A DNA stretch of 64,000 bases from an uncultured Sphingomonas sp. (GCF_913774285.1 NZ_CAJYHX010000034.1:23160-87159), one strand, 5' to 3'; positions 10,353 through 21,887 are shown, counted from the stretch's first letter. A program made the numbers and translations. Notes: generated by a model not told the origin, from the letters alone.

Positions 10353-12371
10353 TCAGGCGAGGTGAAGGCCGGCAACGGCCAGATCGATGAGCTTGATGCC
10401 GATGAACGGCGCGACCAGGCCGCCCAGGCCGTAGATGGCAAGGTTGCGGGCGAGCAGCTGGCCAGCCCCCATCGGCTTATAGGTCACGCCCTTGAGCGCG
10501 AGCGGCACCAGGAACGGGATGATGATCGCGTTGAAGATCACCGCCGACAGGATCGCGCTGGTCGGGCTCGACAGGCCCATCACATTGAGCACGCCGAGGC
10601 CGGGATAGAGCGCGACGAACATCGCCGGGATGATCGCGAAATACTTCGCGACGTCGTTGGCAATCGAGAAGGTGGTGAGCGCCCCGCGGGTCATCAGCAG
10701 CTGCTTGCCGAGGCCGACCACCTCGATCAGCTTGGTCGGATCGCTGTCGAGATCGACCATGTTGCCCGCCTCGCGCGCCGCCTGGGTGCCGGTGTTCATC
10801 GCCACGCCGACATCGGCCTGGGCGAGCGCCGGCGCGTCGTTGGTACCGTCGCCGCACATCGCGACGAGCTTGCCGCCCTGCTGTTCCTGGCGGATCAGCG
10901 CGAGCTTGTCCTCGGGCGTCGCTTCCGCAAGGAAGTCGTCCACGCCCGCCTCGGCAGCGATGGCAGCGGCGGTGAGCGGGTTGTCGCCGGTGATCATCAC
11001 CGTGCGGATGCCCATCCGGCGCAGCTCGGCGAACCGCTCGCGCACCCCGGCCTTGACCACGTCCTTCAGCGCCACCGCGCCGAGCAGGCGGCCGTTGCGG
11101 ACCACCGCCAGCGGGGTCATGCCGCCGCGCGCAATGCCGTCGGTGATGCGCTTGAGCTCGGCGGCACCGGCAGCATCCGGATCCATCTTGAGGATGGAGT
11201 CGACCGCGCCCTTCAGGATAACCGTATCACCCTGGCGGACGCCCGAGCTGCGGGTCTGCGCGGTGAAGGGGATCACTTCGGCATCGGCATCGAGCTTTGC
11301 GTCAAACGCGAACTTCTCGCGGCCCAGCGTCACGATCGAGCGGCCCTCGGGCGTCTCGTCGGCGAGGCTGGCGGTAAGCGCAGCTTCGGCCAGCGTGCGT
11401 TCTTCCACCCCGGTCAGCGGGTGGAAGGCGCTCGCCTGGCGGTCGCCGATGGTGATGGTGCCGGTCTTGTCGAGCAGCAGCACGTCGACGTCACCCGCCG
11501 CCTCCACCGCGCGGCCGGACTTGGCGAGCACGTTGAAGCGCACCAGCCGGTCCATGCCCGCGATGCCGATTGCGGAGAGCAGCGCCGCGATGGTCGTCGG
11601 GATCAGCGTGATCAGCAGCGCCGCCAGCACCGCCACCGGGATCGCACCGCCGGCATAGGTGGCGAAGGCCGGGATCGTGCCCACCGCGATCAGGAAGATG
11701 ATCGTCAGGCCGACGAGCAGGATCGTCAGCGCGATCTCGTTCGGGGTCTTCTGGCGCTCGGCGCCTTCGACCAGCGCGATCATGCGATCGAGGAAGCCCT
11801 TGCCGGGATCTTGCGTCACGCGAAGGATGATCTTGTCCGAGATGACGCGCGTGCCGGCGGTGACCGCCGAACGGTCGCCGCCCGCCTCGCGGATCACCGG
11901 CGCGCTTTCACCGGTGATCGCGGCCTCGTTGACCGAGGCGACGCCCTCGATGACTTCGCCATCGGCCGGGATCAGGTCGCCGGTCTCGACCAGCACGAGG
12001 TCGTCGCGCTCGAGCAGATGCGCCTCGACCTTGCGCCAGGTCTCGCCGACGCCGGTGAGCTTCTTTGCCTCCAGCTCGGACTTGGTCGCGCGCAGCGACG
12101 CTGCCTGGGCGCGGCCCCGGCCCTCGGCGAGTGCTTCGGCGAAGGTGCCGAACAGCACGGTGAGCCACAGCCAGACGATCAGCTGGACCTGGAACCCCAC
12201 CGGCAGCGGCTCGCCGCCGAGCGCGAGCAGCACGGTGAGCAGCAGTGCCGCGACGGCCGTGGTGAACAGGATGGGGTTGCGGATCAGCTCGCGCGGATCG
12301 AGCTTGCGGAACGCGTCCCCGATGGCCGGGCCGATCAGCTCGGCCGCGAAGATGGACTTGGGTGCAGACAT
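10353..12371 (-). CDS. kdpB: Potassium-transporting P-type ATPase subunit KdpB
   Basis: [13 protein letters not shown] phosphorylation motif, [41 protein letters not shown] hinge motif. Confidence 0.97.
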
Positions 12372-12383
12372 TGCTTGTCGTCC

Positions 12384-14087
12384 TCAGAAGAGCTGGCCGC
12401 GGAGCAGCGTGACGTGATCGGCGATCGGCCCCAGCGCCAGGCTCGGCAGGAAGGTGAGCCCGCCCAGGATCAGGATGATGCCGACGAGCAGCCCCACCCA
12501 CAGCGGTCCGGTGGTCGGGAAGGCGCCGACGCCGCCGGCGACCTGCTTCTTGGCGGCGAGGCTGCCGGCGATCGCCAGCACCGGCACGATCACGAAGAAG
12601 CGGCCGAGCCACATCGCGATGCCGAGCATGGCGTTGTAGAAAGGCGTGTTCGCCGAGAGACCCGCAAAGGCCGAGCCGTTGTTGCCGGTCGCGGAGGTGA
12701 AGGCGTAGAGGATCTCCGAGAAGCCGTGCGGGCCGTTATTGGCGATGCCCGCAAGCCCGGCCGGCAGCACCGAGGCCAGCGCAGCGCCGCCCAGGATGCA
12801 CAGCGGCAGCACGGCCACCGCGAGCACCGCCAGCTTCACTTCGCGCGCCTCGATCTTCTTGCCGACATATTCGGGCGTGCGCCCCACCATCAGCCCGGCG
12901 ACGAACACCGAGAGGATGGCGAACAGCAGGAAGCCGTAGATGCCGGCACCGACGCCGCCGACAACGATCTCGCCAAGCTGGATGTTGAACAGCGGAATCA
13001 GGCCACCCAGCGCGGTGAAGCTGTCATGCATCGCATTGACCGCGCCGCACGAAGCCGCTGTGGTGACGACCGCGAACAGCGCGCTGCCGACCACGCCGAA
13101 GCGGGTTTCCTTGCCCTCCAGATTGCCGCCGGCGACATGGAGCGCGTGGAGCGCCGGGTTTCCGGCGGATTCCGCCGCATAGGTCACCGCGATGCCGCCG
13201 AGGAACAGCACCGCCATCGCGGCGAGGATCGCCCAGCCCTGGCGGGTGTCGCCCACCGCCTTGCCGAAGGTCCAGGTAAGGCCGACGCCGACGAGGAAGA
13301 TCGACAGCATCTGCACCAGGTTGGTCAGCGCGGTCGGGTTCTCGAACGGATGCGCCGAGTTGGCGTTGAAGAAGCCGCCCCCATTGGTGCCGAGCATCTT
13401 GATCGCCTCCTGGCTGGCGACGGGGCCGAGCACGATCGTCTGGCGCGCGCCTTCCAGCGTGGTCGCGTCGACGCTGCTCGCCAGCGTCTGCGGCACGCCG
13501 CTGGCCACGAGGAACAGCGCATAGACAAGGCAGATCGGCAGCAGCAGGTAGAGGACGACGCGGGTGAAGTCGGCCCAGAAATTGCCGATGCCGCGCGACT
13601 CCTTCCGCGCGAAACCGCGGAAAAGCGCGAAGGCGATGGCGATGCCGGTCGCAGCGGACGTGAAGTTGTGAACCGCCAGCCCCAGCGCCTGCGACAGGTT
13701 GGAAAGCGTCGATTCGCCCGCATAGCCCTGCCAGTTGGTGTTGGTGGCAAAGCTGATCGCGGTGTTGAACGCGCCGTCGGCGCCCATGCCGGCGAGCCCG
13801 CGCGGGTTCCACGGCAGCACCGCCTGCAGGCGCAGCACCGCATAGGTGAGCACCGCGAGCGCAAGGTTGAACAGGATCAGGTGCAGCGCATAGGCGCGCC
13901 AGCCCTGCTCGGCGTTCGGATCGATGCCGCTGATGCGGTAGATGCCGCGCTCGACGGGGCCGAGGACGCGGTGGAGCGGGGTGCGGCGGCCTTCGTACAG
14001 CGCGAAGAGCCACAGCCCCATCGGCTTGGCGGCGGCAGCGAGGATGGCGACGAACAGGGCAATGAAGCCCCAGCCTTGAACTGTCAT
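12384..14087 (-). CDS. kdpA: Potassium-transporting ATPase subunit KdpA
   Basis: 567 aa polytopic protein with [26 protein letters not shown] selectivity-filter-like motif of KdpA. Confidence 0.97.
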
Positions 14088-14097
14088 GCGGCTCTCC

Positions 14098-14187
14098 TCA
14101 GAAACGCTCGGGCCGCAGCAGCACCGCGACTAGGTAGAGGAGGAGCGCGACTGCGGTCGCGCCGGCGAGCATCAGGTGCAGGCCCAT
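14098..14187 (-). CDS. kdpF: KdpF, 29-aa membrane peptide
   Basis: Manual reverse-strand translation: [29 protein letters not shown]; ends 10 nt before kdpA start; characteristic L(R/Y)PE(R/K)F C-terminus. Below the ORF-track length cutoff. Confidence 0.88.
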
Positions 14188-14190
14188 CGC

Positions 14191-14274
14191 TCAGGCCTTC
14201 ACGCACAGCTGGACGAAGGCCAGCGTAAGCAGGAAAAGCCCGCCGAGCGCGGCGAGCCAGAGAATGTCGGACAT
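14191..14274 (-). CDS. 27-aa single-TM small protein upstream of kdpF
   Basis: Manual translation: MSDILWLAALGGLFLLTLAFVQLCVKA*; stop lies 3 nt before the kdpF ATG; hydrophobic helix. Confidence 0.6.
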   Translation of the reverse strand: MSDILWLAALGGLFLLTLAFVQLCVKA

Positions 14275-14498
14275 GGGGTTGGCCCTTGTTGCGTGCCGCC
14301 GGGTGGCGGCCTTGGGCGCGATCTAGGTCTGGTGAGCGTTAAGCTTCGACGGCGAATGCCGGGCGGCGGCATTAAGAATCCATATAGTCGGGCGGCGGGG
14401 CGTGGCGTTCGGCTGCGGGTTCGGCGTATCGAGGGCTTCTCGGCATTGAACAGGGTAATCGCTGATGGATTGCGGGTCGGCGCCTGCCACACACCACC

Positions 14499-14593
14499 GT
14501 CATTCCCGCGAAGGCGGGAATCCATTGCCCTGTGCGCTGGGGGCAGGAACCGCCGCATCAGCGCGAATGGATCCCCGCCTTCGCGGGGATGAC
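14499..14593. repeat. REP-type nested palindrome, copy 1
   Basis: gtcattcccgcgaaggcgggaatccat ... atggatccccgccttcgcggggatgac: two hairpin arms in inverted orientation; second copy at 32776-32869. Confidence 0.85.
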
Positions 14594-14658
14594 GGCTTGG
14601 AGGCTAGTGCCCGCACTCCAAGCCACTGGGAAAACGCAACCCGCGAGAGGCTCGCCCA

Positions 14659-17277
14659 TTGAACGATCGCCCCAACCCCGATGCGCTGCTGCGCGAAGCC
14701 CGGCGCGAGGCGCGCGGGCGGCTGAAGATCTTCCTCGGTGCGGCCCCCGGCGTGGGCAAGACCTTCGAGATGCTGCGCGGGGGCGCCGAGCGGCTGCGCG
14801 CCGGCAAGGACGTCGTTGTAGGTGTTGTCGAGACGCATGGCCGCGCCGAGACCGAGGCGCTGGTCGCCCCCTTCGAGGTGCTCCCCCGCAAGGCGGTGGA
14901 GCATCAGAGCCACCGGTTGGAGGAGATGGATCTCGACGCGATCCTGGCGCGCCGGCCCACGCTGGTGCTGGTCGACGAGCTCGCCCACACCAATGCGCCC
15001 GGCTGCCGCCACCCGAAGCGCTGGCAGGACGTGGAGGAGCTGCGCGACGCCGGCATCCATGTCTACACCACGCTCAACGTCCAGCATGTCGAAAGCCTCA
15101 ACGACGTGGTGGCGAGCGTCACTCGTGTGCGGGTGCGCGAGACGGTGCCCGACGCGATCTTCGACGATGCCGAGATCGAGCTGGTGGACCTGCCGCCGGA
15201 CGAGCTGATCGACCGGCTGAAGGAGGGCAAGGTCTATGTGCCCGCCGAGGCCAGCCGCGCGCTCGCCCATTTCTTCTCCAAGGCGAACCTTTCCGCGCTC
15301 CGGGAGATGGCGCTGCGCCGCGCCGCGCTCAGCGTCGACCGGGCGATGCTCGACCATCTCGATGCGCTGGCGGTGCCCGGCACCTTCGCGGCCGGCGAGC
15401 GCGTGCTGGTGGCGGTGAGCGAACTGCCGGGCGGCGACGGACTGGTGCGCGCGGGCAAGCGGCTTTCCGACGCGCTGAAGGCACCTTGGCAGGTGGTGTT
15501 CATCGAGACCCCGCGCGCCGAACGCTTCCGCCCGGAGCAACGCCACCGCGTCGCCGAAACGCTGCAACTGGCGAGCAGCCTCGGCGCCACCGTCGCCACC
15601 GTGCCCGCCGCCACCGTGATCGACGGGCTGCGCACCCACCTTGCGGGCATGCGCGCGACCCAGCTGGTGATCGGCCGCTCGCGCCGCAGCTGGTGGTTCG
15701 AGCTGCGCCACGGCTCGGTCGTCGAATCGATGCTGCGCGCCAGCCAGGGCGTCGCGGTCCACGTCCTGCCCTCGACCGAGGAACGGGCCCGCGAGCGCCG
15801 CGCCCCCGCCCTGCCCGCGCTCGGCCGCTGGCAGGAGCATCTGGTCGGAGGGCTGTCCGTCGCGCTGACCGTGCTGCTGGGAAAGGTCAGCCTGCCGCTG
15901 ATCGGCGCGGGCGGCACCGATCTCCTGTTCCTGCTGCCAGTGATCCTGATCGCCTTCCGCTACGGCTTCGGGCCCGGCGTCTCCGCAGCCGCAATGGCGG
16001 GGCTCGCCTACAATTTCTTCTTCCTGCCGCCGCTCTACACCTTCACGATCGGCGACCCGCAAAGCGTGCTGACCTTCTTCGTGCTGGAAGCGATCGCGCT
16101 GTTCACCGCCAACCTCACTGCCCGCTTGCGCGCGCGCGCGACACTCGGCACGCGCAGCGCGCAGGAAAATGCCGCCGTCGCCGCTTTCGGCCAGGCGCTG
16201 GCCCGCGCGTCCGACACCGAGACGACCAGCCGCGTCGTCTGCGAGGAGATCGCGCGGCTGCTCGACGTGTCGGTGCTGCTGCTGGTCCGCCGCGACGGTG
16301 CGCTGACCCGCATCGCCAGCTGTCCGGAAGACGCCCCGCCGATGGGCGCGGTCGACCATGCCGCCGCCGAATGGGCGTGGAGCAGCGGCGAGGCGGGCGG
16401 GGTCGGCACCGGCACGCTGATCGCCGCCGACTGGCAGTTCCACCCCCTGCGCACCAGCCTGGGCGTGCTCGCGGTGATCGGCCTCGCCGCGCCCGACGGC
16501 CGCGAGCCGATCACCGCGGATCGTGCGCTATTGCTCTCTACCCTGCTCGGCCAGGCGGCGCTGGCGCATGAGCGGCTGCGGCTGGAGCAGGACGTGCGCG
16601 AAGTCTCCGTGCTGCGCGAGCGCGACAGGCTGCGCGCCGCCCTGCTCTCCTCGATCGGCCATGACCTGCGCACGCCGCTCACCTCGGTGGCGGCGGCGGT
16701 GGACGCGCTCGCCCATGCCCACCCGCACGAGCCCGCCACCGCCATCGCGCGGGCCGAGGTCGCCAGGCTGCGCCGCTTCCTCGACAATCTGATCGACATG
16801 GTGCGGATCGATGCCGGCGCCGTGGCACTGAACCTGGAGCCGATCGACCTCACCGACGCCGCTGCCGCCGCGGTGCACGACCTGCGCGACGTGCTGGCCG
16901 GCCGCGAGCTGGTGCTGCGCGTGCCGCCGGACCTGCCGCTGGTCCGCGCCGATCCCCGGCTGCTCCACCATATCCTGCTCAACCTGCTCTCCAATGCCGC
17001 CGTGCATGGCGGCGAGGGCCCGATCGAGATCCTCGGCGAGCGCCGCCCGGATGCGGTGCGGCTAGCGGTGCGCGACCATGGTCCCGGCCTGCCCCCCGGC
17101 GAGGAAGCGACGATCTTCGAGACCTTCGCGCGCGGGACCGGCAGCGACCGTGCCGGCGGTAGCGGGCTGGGGCTCGCCATCGCCAAGGGCTTTGCCGGGG
17201 CGATGGCAGCCCCCATCCGCGCCATGGACGCCGAGGGCGGCGGGGCGCTGTTCGCGGTCGACCTCCAGCCGGTCTGA
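14659..17277 (+). CDS. kdpD: Sensor histidine kinase KdpD
   Basis: N-terminal KdpD domain (GAAPGVGKTFEML, VLVDELAHTNAPGCRHPKRWQDVEEL), DUF4118-like TM region, GAF region, HisKA/HATPase (SSIGHDLRTPLTS, NLLSNAAVHG, GSGLGLAIAKGF). Confidence 0.96.
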   Translation: MNDRPNPDALLREARREARGRLKIFLGAAPGVGKTFEMLRGGAERLRAGKDVVVGVVETHGRAETEALVAPFEVLPRKAVEHQSHRLEEMDLDAILARRPTLVLVDELAHTNAPGCRHPKRWQDVEELRDAGIHVYTTLNVQHVESLNDVVASVTRVRVRETVPDAIFDDAEIELVDLPPDELIDRLKEGKVYVPAEASRALAHFFSKANLSALREMALRRAALSVDRAMLDHLDALAVPGTFAAGERVLVAVSELPGGDGLVRAGKRLSDALKAPWQVVFIETPRAERFRPEQRHRVAETLQLASSLGATVATVPAATVIDGLRTHLAGMRATQLVIGRSRRSWWFELRHGSVVESMLRASQGVAVHVLPSTEERARERRAPALPALGRWQEHLVGGLSVALTVLLGKVSLPLIGAGGTDLLFLLPVILIAFRYGFGPGVSAAAMAGLAYNFFFLPPLYTFTIGDPQSVLTFFVLEAIALFTANLTARLRARATLGTRSAQENAAVAAFGQALARASDTETTSRVVCEEIARLLDVSVLLLVRRDGALTRIASCPEDAPPMGAVDHAAAEWAWSSGEAGGVGTGTLIAADWQFHPLRTSLGVLAVIGLAAPDGREPITADRALLLSTLLGQAALAHERLRLEQDVREVSVLRERDRLRAALLSSIGHDLRTPLTSVAAAVDALAHAHPHEPATAIARAEVARLRRFLDNLIDMVRIDAGAVALNLEPIDLTDAAAAAVHDLRDVLAGRELVLRVPPDLPLVRADPRLLHHILLNLLSNAAVHGGEGPIEILGERRPDAVRLAVRDHGPGLPPGEEATIFETFARGTGSDRAGGSGLGLAIAKGFAGAMAAPIRAMDAEGGGALFAVDLQPV

Positions 17278-17364: not shown

Positions 17365-18066
17365 ATGGTGGCAACACGGTTTTACATCGAAACGCAGGGC
17401 GTGGGGGCAAGCGAGATCGACCTGGCGACGCGGTTCGCCCAACTCTTCGCGTGCAGCGAAGCGGTCGCGACCGAGCTGGCCGCGGCGGCGATGCTCCGTC
17501 GCTGCCCGCAAGGTGCCACCGTCGTCCACCAAGGCGAGATACTGGGCCGCGTGCTGGTGCTACTCGAAGGCCATGTCCGCGCCGCGATGGTGACGCTGGA
17601 CGGCCGCGTGCTCCAGATCGCCGAACACCATCCCGGCGACATTTTCGGCGGCGTCGACCCCGGCCGCGAGCAGGCGAGCGACTGCACCGCCACCATGCCG
17701 ACCGTGATCGCCAGCTTCGCCACGGCCGACTTCTACGCGTTCGCCGAACGCCATGCGTGTGTCGGCATCGTGCTGGCCCGGACGATGGTGCGCCAGTTCG
17801 GCGCGCTGAGCCAGCTCGTCTCGGCGCGGCTGACGCTTTCCGCCAATGGCCGCGTCCATGCCGAGCTGTTGCGGCTGGCGCGCGCGCAGGACGGGCGCTG
17901 GATCCGCCCGCTGCCGGTGCTGTCCGACCTCGCCCTGCGTGTGCAGACCGCGCGCGAAACCGTCTCCCGCGCCGTATCCGCGCTCGAGCGGCGCGGCATC
18001 GTCCAGCGGCACGAGGACGGGCTGGAGATCGTCGCCCCCGCCCGGCTCGAAGCGCTTATCGTCTGA
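17365..18066 (+). CDS. Crp/Fnr-family transcriptional regulator
   Basis: cNMP-binding-like fold (GATVVHQGEILGRVLVLLEGHVRAAM) and C-terminal HTH (SDLALRVQTARETVSRAVSALERRGIVQRHEDGLEIV). ORF may start at TTG 17296. Confidence 0.85.
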   Translation: MVATRFYIETQGVGASEIDLATRFAQLFACSEAVATELAAAAMLRRCPQGATVVHQGEILGRVLVLLEGHVRAAMVTLDGRVLQIAEHHPGDIFGGVDPGREQASDCTATMPTVIASFATADFYAFAERHACVGIVLARTMVRQFGALSQLVSARLTLSANGRVHAELLRLARAQDGRWIRPLPVLSDLALRVQTARETVSRAVSALERRGIVQRHEDGLEIVAPARLEALIV

Positions 18067-19687
18067 ACCGCGGCTTGAGCGCGTAGACCGTCGTCGGCGC
18101 CTGGCCGACCAGCGCCATCTCACCGACCAGCTCCGCCCGCCCCGCATCGGCCTCGCACGCGGCGAGGCTGGCCGCGAAGGCTTCGCTGGCGAAGGTGGCG
18201 CCAGCGGTCGTCACCCCCAGCATCCGCTCGGCGAGGTCGAAGGCGCCGCCCAGCAGCACGGGCGCGCCGGTCACCGGATCGTCGATCGAGATGGCGAGGC
18301 CGATGTGCAGCGCCTGGCGGAACGGCCCGCTCGCCCCCAGCGTCGCCGACAGCCGCACCGCCGCACCGTACGCCTGGCTGGTGCCCTCGAACGCGATCAG
18401 CAGCCGCCGCGAGGTCCAGCGGATGGCGAGCGTAGGCGTGTGGCACAGCGCCTGGCGCAGCGCCGGCAGGCGCCCGGCGACGTCGCGGTCGAGCGCCATG
18501 AAATCCTCGCCCTCGCCGCCGAGCAGGTCGACCGCGAGCACCGAGATCACCTGCGGCGCGGTACGATCGGCCCCCTGCGGACCCGAGGGGGCGCGCAGCG
18601 GCAGCAGATGCTGGCGCCGCCCCGCCTTGCGCCACAATCCACCAGCGTGCGCGCTCTGGCCGACTTCGTCGACCGAGGCGGGGCCGAGCAGCAGTTGCAC
18701 CGCCTCGGACTGGAGCAGCCCGGCATGCATCGCCGCGCGCCCCATCGCGACGAGATCGGCGAGCCGGACCGAGGGCATGAACGCCGCCGGGCTCGCCTCG
18801 CCCATTTCCTGGACGCTGGCGGCCTCGGCCAGCGCCGCCTCGAAGCGCGTCACCCAGCCTTCGCCATGCGGCCGCACCGAGCGATCGACGAACGCCGCGA
18901 CGTCGCCGGGCAGCACCACGTGCAGCTCGGCACCGCGCGCGATCAGCCGCTCGGCGATCAGCAGGTCGGCGCCGGCGGCGAGCGCGCCATAGCCGAAGCC
19001 CACCCGCTCCTGCGCCAGCAGCGCATCGATCGATTCGGAAAGCGCCGCCACGTCCTCGGGCAGGCGCATATGGCCGGCAAAATGGAGGCTGCGCGGCGGG
19101 CGATAGGCATCGAGCCATGCCGCCGGTGCGCCCTGCTCGGCGAGAATCACGCCGAACTGGCGCAGCGTCGAGGCATGGTCTTCCCAGGCGAGCGGCGCCG
19201 CGCCGATCGCGCGGGCGAGCGCGGTCTCGGCGGCGTCGCGGTCGCCGGCGAGCAGCAGCGCCTCGGCCTCGGTCGCGCCGAGCCAATAGGGGGTTTCGTC
19301 GGGAACGCCTGCCTGGAGCAGGTCCTGCACGTCGGCGGCCAGCGCCTGGCTGCCCGCCACGTCCCCGGCGATCAGTGCGAGCGTCGCCGCGTTGATCAGG
19401 GGATAGGGGGCCGGGGCCAACTGCGCCGCCGCGCTATAGGCGGCGGCGGCTTCGCGGGCATGCTGCCGCCGGGCCTCGCCGGCGAGCAGCAGTGCCTCGT
19501 CCTTGAGGAGCCTGCCGCGCAGGCTGAGCACGGCGGGATCGTCCGCGACGCGGTCATAACCCGCGTCGCGAAACATCCGCCAGGCGAGATCGAGCGCACC
19601 GGCACGCGCCTGGGCCGTTATCGCTAGCACACTCGACGTCATCCTACCCGGCATACTCCCCAGTCTTCGAAGCGAAGATTCGTTCAA
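18056..19687 (-). CDS. TPR-repeat protein with SLOG-like Rossmann segment and degenerate class III cyclase-like C-terminus
   Basis: N-terminal helical repeats; LHFAGHM...GFGYGALAAGADLLIAERLIARGAELHVVLPGD resembles SLOG/LOG motifs; C-terminal VLAVDLLGG...LHIGLAIS...GGAFDLAERML...GATFASEAFAA...VGEMAL resembles a nucleotidyl cyclase homology domain. TTG start overlaps the upstream gene; ATG starts at 19654/19642 possible. Confidence 0.65.
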   Translation of the reverse strand: MNESSLRRLGSMPGRMTSSVLAITAQARAGALDLAWRMFRDAGYDRVADDPAVLSLRGRLLKDEALLLAGEARRQHAREAAAAYSAAAQLAPAPYPLINAATLALIAGDVAGSQALAADVQDLLQAGVPDETPYWLGATEAEALLLAGDRDAAETALARAIGAAPLAWEDHASTLRQFGVILAEQGAPAAWLDAYRPPRSLHFAGHMRLPEDVAALSESIDALLAQERVGFGYGALAAGADLLIAERLIARGAELHVVLPGDVAAFVDRSVRPHGEGWVTRFEAALAEAASVQEMGEASPAAFMPSVRLADLVAMGRAAMHAGLLQSEAVQLLLGPASVDEVGQSAHAGGLWRKAGRRQHLLPLRAPSGPQGADRTAPQVISVLAVDLLGGEGEDFMALDRDVAGRLPALRQALCHTPTLAIRWTSRRLLIAFEGTSQAYGAAVRLSATLGASGPFRQALHIGLAISIDDPVTGAPVLLGGAFDLAERMLGVTTAGATFASEAFAASLAACEADAGRAELVGEMALVGQAPTTVYALKPRFRR

Positions 19688-20304
19688 TCCCCTTCATCGG
19701 GTTCCGGCGGCGTCGGCGGGGTCGGCGGCCTACGACCACCTTGGTTTTCCACGTCCGGATCGATAATCGTGGGCATGCGCAAATCCCCTTGGATAAAGTC
19801 TACGTATAAGTTCAGCCCTTCGCACGTCTTACGATGCTGGGGATTGGTTACACTTTCAACAAAGAACCCGACAGCAGCAATCCTACCATCATCATCCAGC
19901 AGCGGAAACGCGCGGCGATACTTACCATCGGGATATTCATTCTTGGTACTAACATATAGACTATTAGGCGTATATTCCCAAAAATCACCGATCAGCTTAA
20001 AAATGACGCAGCACGGCTCTCGCACTACGATATCCAGCGGCGTAGGCGGCGGCGTCGTCAACCCGGCGAGGCCAACTTTGATGTTCGGCGGCGCTACGAC
20101 GAAGTCGCGGACAATCTTGGTAAAGTCGTCTCCGGGCGAAACCTCCTTGCCGTTACCGAACTCATCGACAGCCTCAAATCCCTGAATATGAAACTTCAGA
20201 GATCCAAGCGGATATCCACCCTCACTGCTAGCAAAAATCTGATACCGCTTTACCAGCCGGATGTACGACGGCGGGTATATGGACAGAGGATATTGACCAA
20301 TCAT
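19684..20304 (-). CDS. Hypothetical protein of unknown family, proline-rich C-terminal tail
   Basis: 206-aa ORF overlapping the neighbour on each side by 4 nt (ATGA at 20301-20304; TTGA at 19684-19687); no family recognised; locally low GC. Confidence 0.7.
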   Translation of the reverse strand: MIGQYPLSIYPPSYIRLVKRYQIFASSEGGYPLGSLKFHIQGFEAVDEFGNGKEVSPGDDFTKIVRDFVVAPPNIKVGLAGLTTPPPTPLDIVVREPCCVIFKLIGDFWEYTPNSLYVSTKNEYPDGKYRRAFPLLDDDGRIAAVGFFVESVTNPQHRKTCEGLNLYVDFIQGDLRMPTIIDPDVENQGGRRPPTPPTPPEPDEGD

Positions 20305-21887
20305 TTATCTCGCCTTTGCATGTAGACCAGGTCGGCCTCCATATCCTTCAACCTAGTAGCGAGTTCTTGATTTTCGGTATCTAACCCCGTCATTCTACGG
20401 AGGTCGGCGATTGCCGCCTCCATGCGCCGCCGCGCCATTGCAGAATCGCCATGGAGATCTTCGGTGTTCGCAAGAGCGCGTTCGGCCCAGATCAACATGC
20501 GCTGGTTGCGCGCATTCTGCGGATCTTGGACCAGCAAGCGCTGGAGCAACGCAACCTGCTGACGCCGCAATTCGAGTGCCTCAGGGACTTTGTGACGGTC
20601 GACATACGCGTCTGCTAGCCACCCCTGCCGGTTCGCAACGTCCCGCCAACGCTGTTCCGATTTGGGTTCGCGCCGCGCTAACGCCTCTACAGCGTTAAGA
20701 GCTTCCGTGCATAGCGCGACCACGTTATTGGCCGCATGCTGGTCCATCTTAAGAGAGCACAGATTTCCGGCGGAATAGGCGACTTCCTCAGCGCTGTGCG
20801 GATTCGCGGGACCAAGCGCCATCAGCCGGCGCGCTAATGCTGCGTAAGCCTCAAAATGTGGCTCGGCAGCAGCGAGTTCCCTAGCTTTGAAGTGCAGGTT
20901 TCCCAGATAGAACTCGCTTTGCGCATGCGCGAACACGATGTCGTACTGGTTCGGCTCCCGCTCGATCAGCGCGTGGGTGATGCGGTTGGCCTGGAGGAAG
21001 GCGGCGCGGGCGCGGGCGGTTTCCTTTGCCTCCATCGCGTCCTCGCCCATCGTCATGATCGCGCGGGCGCGGCGGGCGAGGACGTCGGGGGGCAGCGTCG
21101 CCAGATCCTGCTCGCCATAATAGCGCAGCGCACGCGCATTGGCTTCCCGAAGCACGTCGAGCCGGCCGACCTCTTTCAGCCGGCCCCGCAGGTCGGTCAG
21201 CATGAATTCCACCAGCCCCTCCGCCTGGGCACGCCGAGCCTCCGCCTCCCCGCGGGCCCGCACGGCCAGGATCGTCAATCCGGCCATGGCTAGCAGCAAA
21301 AGAATCGCGAGCGCCGTGACGGCCGTCACGCGCCGCACCCGCGCCTGCGCGTCGCGCTGCACCAGCGCGTCGAGCGGCACCCCCACCGCGCCCGCGACCA
21401 GCTTGAGCAGCGCCAGCCGCTTGCCGTCCTTGCCCTCGCGGAAATCGGCGGCGAGCGGCTCGGTCTCCGCGCCGTCGGCGGTGCGCCGCAGCGGCAGCGG
21501 CAGCGCCTCGCCGGGCTCGCCCTGGAACAGCGCGGCGAGCACCGGGCGATCGGGATGGAGTTCGCGGAACAGCGCGATTTCGCGCGCCACCCATTGCGAG
21601 GCGGCACCCGCAGGCGTGCAGACGACGATCAGGCAGGCGGACTCGGCCAGCGCCGCGCGCACCTCGGCGCTGAGGTCGCTGGCGGCGGAGAGTTCGTCGA
21701 GATCGCGGAAGATCCGCCCCAGCCGCCGCGGCACCGGCCCGAAGGCCGCCTCGCGCCCGACCAGCTTGGCGGGGATGCGATAGCGCTCCAGCGCGCGGTG
21801 CAGCCAGCGCGCGCGGCCGCGATCGGCATGGTTGTAGCTGATGAACGCGCCGTACCGCGCGCTCGCGCCCGATTCTGTCGTTGTCAC
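20301..21887 (-). CDS. TIR-domain protein with TM helix and TPR-like C-terminal region
   Basis: AFISYNHADRGRARWLHRALERYRIP..., IFRDLDEL, CLIVVCTPAGAASQWVAREIALF (TIR pattern incl. W-x-x-x-E), TM VTAVTALAILLLLAMAGLTILAV, then helical repeats. Confidence 0.85.
   Translation of the reverse strand: MTTTESGASARYGAFISYNHADRGRARWLHRALERYRIPAKLVGREAAFGPVPRRLGRIFRDLDELSAASDLSAEVRAALAESACLIVVCTPAGAASQWVAREIALFRELHPDRPVLAALFQGEPGEALPLPLRRTADGAETEPLAADFREGKDGKRLALLKLVAGAVGVPLDALVQRDAQARVRRVTAVTALAILLLLAMAGLTILAVRARGEAEARRAQAEGLVEFMLTDLRGRLKEVGRLDVLREANARALRYYGEQDLATLPPDVLARRARAIMTMGEDAMEAKETARARAAFLQANRITHALIEREPNQYDIVFAHAQSEFYLGNLHFKARELAAAEPHFEAYAALARRLMALGPANPHSAEEVAYSAGNLCSLKMDQHAANNVVALCTEALNAVEALARREPKSEQRWRDVANRQGWLADAYVDRHKVPEALELRRQQVALLQRLLVQDPQNARNQRMLIWAERALANTEDLHGDSAMARRRMEAAIADLRRMTGLDTENQELATRLKDMEADLVYMQRRDK

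What the first reader, a model, noticed from the sequence alone, without database searches (positions are those of the whole stretch)
18056..21887. Three-gene overlapping operon: TIR-TM-TPR protein, orphan protein, and TPR/SLOG-like/cyclase-like protein
Seen in sequence: genes 21887->20301, 20304->19684 and 19687->18056 overlap by 4 nt at both junctions (ATGA, TTGA), implying translational coupling. The first encodes a TIR domain with W-x-x-x-E (SQWVAREI), a TM helix and TPR-like repeats; the third has a SLOG-like segment (GALAAGADLLIAERLIARGAELHVVLP). Established: in Thoeris and related systems TIR domains consume NAD or make nucleotide signals and SLOG domains bind nucleotide-derived signals. 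Inference: a membrane-anchored TIR signaller coupled to a SLOG-like receptor through an unknown middle protein would be a new system architecture. Caveat: TIR-TPR proteins are also found in non-defence contexts.
Basis: partly seen in the sequence, partly recalled or inferred. Interest (0 to 1): 0.72.

Follow-up and report, generated by a model that had tools for sequence, protein, structure and literature searches.

The report
TIR cassette with swappable sensor segment
In Sphingomonas and its relatives a small gene cassette couples a membrane-anchored TIR (immune-type) enzyme to a fast-changing partner protein, a signal-receiver protein and usually a transcription regulator, and only the sensing parts are swapped between strains, as expected if cells keep exchanging what the system recognises.

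Summary
The three genes are real and form a conserved cassette. The middle gene is not an orphan (Pfam PF20301 'predicted novel nucleotide synthetase'). The third is a TPR-S sensor protein (PF20308) with a Rossmann-like domain and a class III cyclase fold that has lost its catalytic set. Neighbourhoods of 31 other genomes found with the middle protein show the order TIR-middle-TPR-S in 27. The second 'TTGA overlap' is doubtful: the conserved P3 start is ATG 19642. A SLOG fold was not confirmed. The new observation is a block (about 19645-20890: TPR half of P1 plus all of P2) where sister strains fall from about 90% to 68-74% DNA identity. Synonymous divergence there is near saturation, GC3 is low, and the P2 tree conflicts with the flanks. 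Across 31 loci the P1 TPR half co-varies with P2 (r=0.70), not with its own TIR (r=0.21). Best reading: a TIR signalling system, probably defence, whose recognition module (P1 TPR + P2) is shuffled by recombination. Function is inferred; the flanks are ordinary chromosomal genes, not defence islands.

The parts
20301..21887 (-). P1: TIR-TM-TPR protein, 528 aa, GTG start
   Evidence: PF13676 2e-11, PF08937 1.4e-6; start shared with relatives
21393..21845 (-). TIR domain of P1 (about aa 15-165), W99xxxE103 invariant
   Evidence: mean pairwise identity over 34 loci 0.58
21261..21326 (-). single transmembrane helix of P1 (about aa 188-209)
   Evidence: hydrophobicity and position conserved in homologues
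20304..20912 (-). TPR-like C-terminal half of P1 (about aa 326-528), hypervariable
   Evidence: mean pairwise identity 0.29; dS 1.0-3.1 among sister strains
19684..20304 (-). P2: middle protein, PF20301 'pNTSase1', 206 aa
   Evidence: Pfam 5.1e-13; mean pairwise identity 0.21
19744..19761 (-). near-invariant C-terminal motif D-P-x-x-x-N of P2 (aa 182-187)
   Evidence: alignment A1 and 39 of 42 middle proteins
19645..20890 (.). hypervariable, low-GC, recombining block (P1 TPR half + all of P2); edges approximate
18056..19642 (-).
   Evidence: PF20308 9.5e-10; start conservation; model pLDDT 87.8
19103..19621 (-). TPR-S helical domain of P3 (about aa 23-195, counted from the TTG)
18599..19093 (-). 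Rossmann-like alpha/beta domain of P3 (about aa 199-363) with GALAAGADLLIAE motif; SLOG identity unproven
   Evidence: secondary structure; motif conserved
18074..18553 (-). class III cyclase fold of P3 (about aa 379-538), catalytic set lost
   Evidence: Foldseek to Rv1900c cyclase TMt up to 0.82; residues
17296..18066 (+). Crp/Fnr-type regulator, convergent, overlapping the 3' end of P3 by 11 nt (ORF start approximate)
   Evidence: PF00027 2.3e-10, PF13545 4.3e-10; same position in many loci

Best explanation
A TIR-based danger-signalling cassette made of two modules. Module 1 is recognition plus enzyme: the TPR half of P1 together with P2 forms the recognition unit, and when it binds or loses its target (probably a phage-derived or phage-altered component) the N-terminal TIR of P1 is activated at the membrane and cleaves NAD+. 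Module 2 is reception: P3, by its TPR-S and Rossmann-like domains, senses the TIR product or the activated P1. It relays this, with its catalytically dead cyclase domain acting as a nucleotide-binding or dimerising switch, to the response; the convergent Crp/Fnr protein probably sets the transcriptional output or the expression of the cassette. The recognition unit is replaced between strains by homologous recombination while the enzyme and receiver are inherited vertically. Shown here: anatomy, co-occurrence, modularity, hypervariability, recombination, TPR-P2 co-variation, loss of cyclase residues. Inferred: NAD+ cleavage, target, signal, role of P3 and Crp, and defence as the purpose.
For: Order TIR-middle-TPR-S in 27 of 31 other genomes found with the middle protein; TIR directly upstream in 30 of 31; Crp-type gene next to P3 in 21 of 31. 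Seven distant loci found independently with P3: TIR 7/7, middle gene 6/7, Crp 7/7. Two-module structure: TIR + middle gene(s) alone in L097, L099, L103; TPR-S + Crp alone in L102. Invariant W/E of the TIR. Identity falls from about 0.90 to 0.68-0.74 in the block, with sharp edges at P1 aa ~330 and at P3's ATG. dS 0.09-0.52 in the TIR-TM half against 1.0-3.1 in the TPR half and 0.5-2.9 in P2; GC3 0.85-0.89 against 0.56-0.69. Lower GC3 of the TPR half in 27 of 33 loci outside the clade. AU test: P2 rejects the P1 N-half and P3 trees (5e-7, 5e-10), and they reject the P2 tree (1e-3, 2e-4). P1 TPR half co-varies with P2 r=0.70 (0.68 after removing TIR) but with its own TIR only r=0.21. C-terminal TPR sensors recognising phage proteins are known for STAND immune proteins (PMC10907252).
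Against: No activity was tested. The 92 flanking proteins sampled are metabolic or housekeeping in the families listed, without integrases or clear defence genes, and the site between kdpD and an M20 peptidase gene is kept across the sister Sphingomonas, so it does not behave like a typical defence-island system. dN/dS is low everywhere (at most about 0.36), so the block shows exchange of old alleles, not rapid adaptive change. No obvious killing effector besides TIR. Crp suggests regulation rather than suicide. The P2 model is of low confidence (pLDDT 65.6).
Confidence: 0.45

Rival explanations
1. Non-defence regulatory system: the cassette senses an envelope, metabolic or self-component and answers through the Crp/Fnr regulator; the variable segment follows a variable self surface component, not phage.
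For: Crp-type gene in most cassettes; one chromosomal copy, ordinary flanks, no defence genes; stable site in sister Sphingomonas; purifying selection.
Against: Patchy presence (32 of 301 family genomes); TIR and TPR-S families are those of predicted conflict systems; exchange of ancient alleles is typical of recognition of hostile or variable targets.
Confidence: 0.22
2. Thoeris-like abortive infection: P1 makes a cyclic ADP-ribose isomer which binds the SLOG-like pocket of P3, and P3 is the effector.
For: P1 matches the ThsB_TIR family above its cut-off; P3 has a Rossmann-like domain.
Against: No SIR2, TM-macro or other known ThsA effector domain in P3; no SLOG family match; P1 has a TM helix and TPR half, unlike the stand-alone TIR of ThsB; no PADLOC Thoeris match.
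Confidence: 0.15
3. P2 is a nucleotide synthetase, as its Pfam name says, making the signal that P3 senses, with TIR as the effector.
For: Pfam PF20301 name and match 5.1e-13; adjacent sensor protein.
Against: Only D and P (and nearly N) of one C-terminal motif are conserved, too few for a metal-dependent nucleotide-joining active site; mean identity 0.21 against 0.58 for TIR; the model is beta-rich with only non-significant, Ig-like Foldseek matches; it co-varies most with the P1 TPR half.
Confidence: 0.1
4. P2 is a cognate inhibitor (antitoxin-like) of P1: it holds the TIR silent through the TPR half, and loss of P2 during infection releases it; matched pairs drift and are exchanged together.
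For: P2 overlaps P1 by 4 nt; strong TPR-P2 co-variation; minimal TIR + P2 pairs exist.
Against: In the sister strains the P2 and TPR-half trees are not the same (P2 rejects the TPR-half tree), so exchange is not strictly pairwise; L042 has TIR and TPR-S without P2.
Confidence: 0.12

Closest known systems
Predicted TIR / TPR-S / pNTSase conflict systems (Burroughs and Aravind 2020, J Bacteriol e00365-20; recalled from memory, paper not held)
   Same: P2 and P3 match the Pfam families PF20301 and PF20308, which I believe were defined from that survey; TIR as NAD+-using component; TPR-S proposed as sensor of NAD+-derived signals.
   Different: I could not check whether this gene order, the Crp partner, the dead cyclase or the recombining block is described there; the nucleotide-synthetase role of P2 is not supported by what I see.
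Thoeris (ThsB TIR + ThsA)
   Same: TIR protein related to ThsB by profile plus a second protein with a nucleotide-binding-type domain.
   Different: No SIR2-SLOG or TM-macro ThsA (PMC11204291); P1 is membrane anchored with a TPR half; extra P2 and Crp genes.
STAND/Avs-type immune proteins and DGR-diversified conflict sensors (PMC10907252)
   Same: Conserved N-terminal effector, variable C-terminal TPR or other sensor; sensor diversified while signalling parts stay.
   Different: No NTPase; diversity arises here by allele exchange with saturated dS and purifying selection, not targeted mutagenesis; the sensor is split over two genes.
Class III nucleotidyl cyclases with Crp (cAMP-Crp logic)
   Same: P3 C-terminal fold and a Crp/Fnr neighbour.
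   Different: Catalytic set lost in cassette copies; an intact relative (L044) lies outside the standard cassette.

Membership tests
TIR NADase / signalling TIR | TIR fold with conserved catalytic Glu | tested here: met
   PF13676 2e-11; E103 invariant in 20 homologues
TIR NADase / signalling TIR | NAD+ cleavage | not testable with these tools
   needs an enzyme assay
Thoeris | ThsA effector (SIR2-SLOG or TM-macro) next to the TIR gene | tested here: not met
   no such domain in P2 or P3
Thoeris | ThsB-type TIR | tested here: met
   PF08937 29.1 bits, cut-off 21.2
TPR-S sensor proteins (PF20308) | match above curated cut-off | tested here: met
   39.4 bits, cut-off 27.6; 21 of 22 homologues match at E up to 0.5
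pNTSase1 (PF20301) | match above curated cut-off | tested here: met
   49.7 bits, cut-off 25
pNTSase1 (PF20301) | conserved catalytic residues of a nucleotide synthetase | tested here: inconclusive
   only D-P and nearly N conserved among 34-42 members, which speaks against; what the family authors proposed as active site is unknown to me
SLOG superfamily | SLOG fold or family match | tested here: inconclusive
   Rossmann-like topology in the model, no Pfam SLOG match; the domain could not be fold-searched alone
Class III nucleotidyl cyclase | cyclase homology fold | tested here: met
   Foldseek E 7.6e-7, TMt up to 0.82
Class III nucleotidyl cyclase | two metal Asp, Asn and Arg of the active site | tested here: not met
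   cassette copies lack the full set; only L044 keeps it; PF00211 matches 1 of 22
Crp/Fnr regulators | cNMP-binding domain plus Crp HTH | tested here: met
   PF00027 and PF13545
Crp/Fnr regulators | cAMP-binding Arg-Ser pair | tested here: inconclusive
   position not conserved across cassette copies
Defence-island system | neighbouring defence or mobile genes | tested here: not met
   92 flanking proteins: metabolic families; no defence family in more than one of them

The most novel reading that the evidence does not exclude
A bacterial TIR immune receptor split over two genes, whose recognition part (P1 TPR half + beta-rich P2) circulates as exchangeable alleles among strains while the enzyme and receiver stay fixed, and which reports to the cell through a dead cyclase and a Crp-type regulator, i.e. 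an inducible, transcription-linked TIR response and not only suicide.
Probability: 0.3. Interest if true: 0.78.

Novelty: new variant of a known kind. Interest (0 to 1): 0.6.

Why it matters
If true, it gives a natural, small and testable example of how a bacterial TIR system changes its specificity: the exchanged segment marks exactly which 1.2 kb to swap between strains and predicts that the TPR half and the middle protein touch each other. It also questions the 'nucleotide synthetase' label of a Pfam family and links TIR/TPR-S signalling with a Crp-type regulator.

Tried and rejected
PADLOC: only a weak SAVED-TIR match for P1, none for P2 or P3. NCBIfam: nothing above cut-off. Foldseek of P2: nothing significant; best but meaningless hits are Ig-fold proteins. 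P2 profile against PDB sequences: nothing. P3 in plasmids: one distant Novosphingobium hit. Class-level and phylum-level searches: almost nothing outside the order. tRNA integration site: tRNA genes in only 3 of the 32 loci scanned, no pattern. Paper searches for the family names found no description of the cassette; the key 2020 paper is not held. Defence-island idea rejected by the flank scan. DGR-type mutagenesis as source of variation rejected because synonymous sites are near saturation and dN/dS is low.

Full report
What was checked. The ORFs 21887-20301 (P1), 20304-19684 (P2) and 19687-18056 (P3) exist. P1 and P2 overlap by ATGA. The P2/P3 TTGA overlap relies on a TTG; among seven sister loci only ATG 19642 is conserved, and the divergence profile breaks at that codon, so P3 probably begins there.

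Domains. P1 has a TIR domain (PF13676 2e-11; ThsB_TIR 1.4e-6) with W99 and E103 invariant in 20 homologues, one TM helix and a TPR-like half (weak PDB TPR matches). P2 is PF20301 'pNTSase1' (5.1e-13) and P3 carries PF20308 TPR-S (9.5e-10). The AlphaFold2 model of P3 (pLDDT 87.8) shows a helical repeat domain, a Rossmann-like domain and a C-terminal alpha+beta domain. The last matches class III cyclases (Foldseek E 7.6e-7, TMt up to 0.82), but the catalytic Asp-Asp-Asn-Arg set is complete only in L044, a relative outside the standard cassette. SLOG identity of the middle domain stays unproven. P2's model is beta-rich and of low confidence, with no significant structural match.

Conservation of the cassette. 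A profile of middle proteins hits 32 of 301 genomes of the same family and almost none elsewhere in the class. In the 31 other genomes the TIR gene lies directly upstream in 30; 27 have TIR-middle-TPR-S in order; 21 have a Crp/Fnr gene next to P3, 20 of them convergent. Seven distant loci fetched through P3 show TIR 7/7, Crp 7/7 and a middle gene 6/7. Three loci (L097, L099, L103) have TIR with one or two middle genes and no P3 or Crp; L102 has P3 and Crp without the others. This points to two modules. Flanks differ between genera and are ordinary genes.

The variable block. Against sister Sphingomonas the locus is about 88-93% identical, but a block of about 1.2 kb, from P1 residue ~330 to the P3 start, is only 68-74% identical, with sharp edges and lower GC. 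dS is 0.09-0.52 in the TIR-TM half and 0.18-0.61 in P3, but 1.0-3.1 in the TPR half and 0.5-2.9 in P2; dN/dS is low throughout. The P2 tree and the flank trees reject each other by the AU test. So the block has been exchanged by recombination and its alleles are old. Over 34 divergent loci the mean identities are TIR 0.58, TM region 0.54, TPR-S 0.49, Crp 0.40, Rossmann 0.39, P1 TPR half 0.29, P3 C-terminus 0.22, middle protein 0.21. In 27 of 33 loci outside the clade the TPR half has lower GC3 than the TIR half. Distance matrices of 31 loci correlate strongly between the P1 TPR half and P2 (r 0.70; 0.68 after removing the TIR signal) but weakly between the P1 TPR half and its own TIR (r 0.21). 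This fits a recognition unit made of the P1 TPR half and P2, inherited apart from the enzyme. Limits: identity-based distances, a family sample of uneven relatedness, and within the sister clade the P2 and TPR-half trees are not identical.

Mechanism and rivals. The best reading is a TIR danger-signalling system with an exchangeable recognition unit, P3 as receiver and Crp as likely transcriptional arm. Defence as the purpose is inferred from the families, patchiness and the allele exchange; the ordinary flanks and the Crp gene keep a regulatory role open. The synthetase label of P2 is doubtful because only a C-terminal D-P-x-x-x-N motif is conserved.

Known or new. The families are known; Pfam names trace, as far as I recall, to Burroughs and Aravind 2020, which I could not read. 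No held paper found describes the cassette with Crp, the dead cyclase or the exchanged block.

Noticed in passing
L040:2777-3589 (-): This middle protein alone starts with a Tat/lipoprotein-like signal (DRRGVLIGSGLALAVAACSS), hinting that P2 may act outside the cytoplasm in some cassettes.
   Followed up: partly
L044:7098-9353 (+) and 10363-12189 (-): A TPR-S protein with an intact class III cyclase domain lies opposite a TIR-TPR gene, without a middle gene or adjacent Crp; possibly the ancestral, active form of P3.
   Followed up: partly
L042:6639-9960: Cassette with TIR and TPR-S genes overlapping directly and no middle gene.
   Followed up: no
L097:6104-7422: Two different middle proteins in tandem behind one TIR-TPR gene, no TPR-S or Crp.
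   Followed up: partly
window 19744-19761 and middle proteins of about 39 of 42 loci: Almost every middle protein, however divergent, ends in I-D-P-x-x-x-N followed by a Gly/Pro-rich tail; the meaning of this tail is unknown.
   Followed up: partly
window 18201-18500: The cyclase-like end of P3 is also more divergent than the rest of P3 in some sister strains (identity 0.69-0.84).
   Followed up: no
L046:9349-11003: In this strain the divergent region reaches into the start of P3 and the P2-P3 spacing differs, suggesting a different breakpoint.
   Followed up: no
window 10353-17277: Kdp potassium-transport genes (kdpB, kdpA-like, kdpD) adjoin the cassette; KdpD also neighbours the cassette in the more distant L037.
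   Followed up: partly
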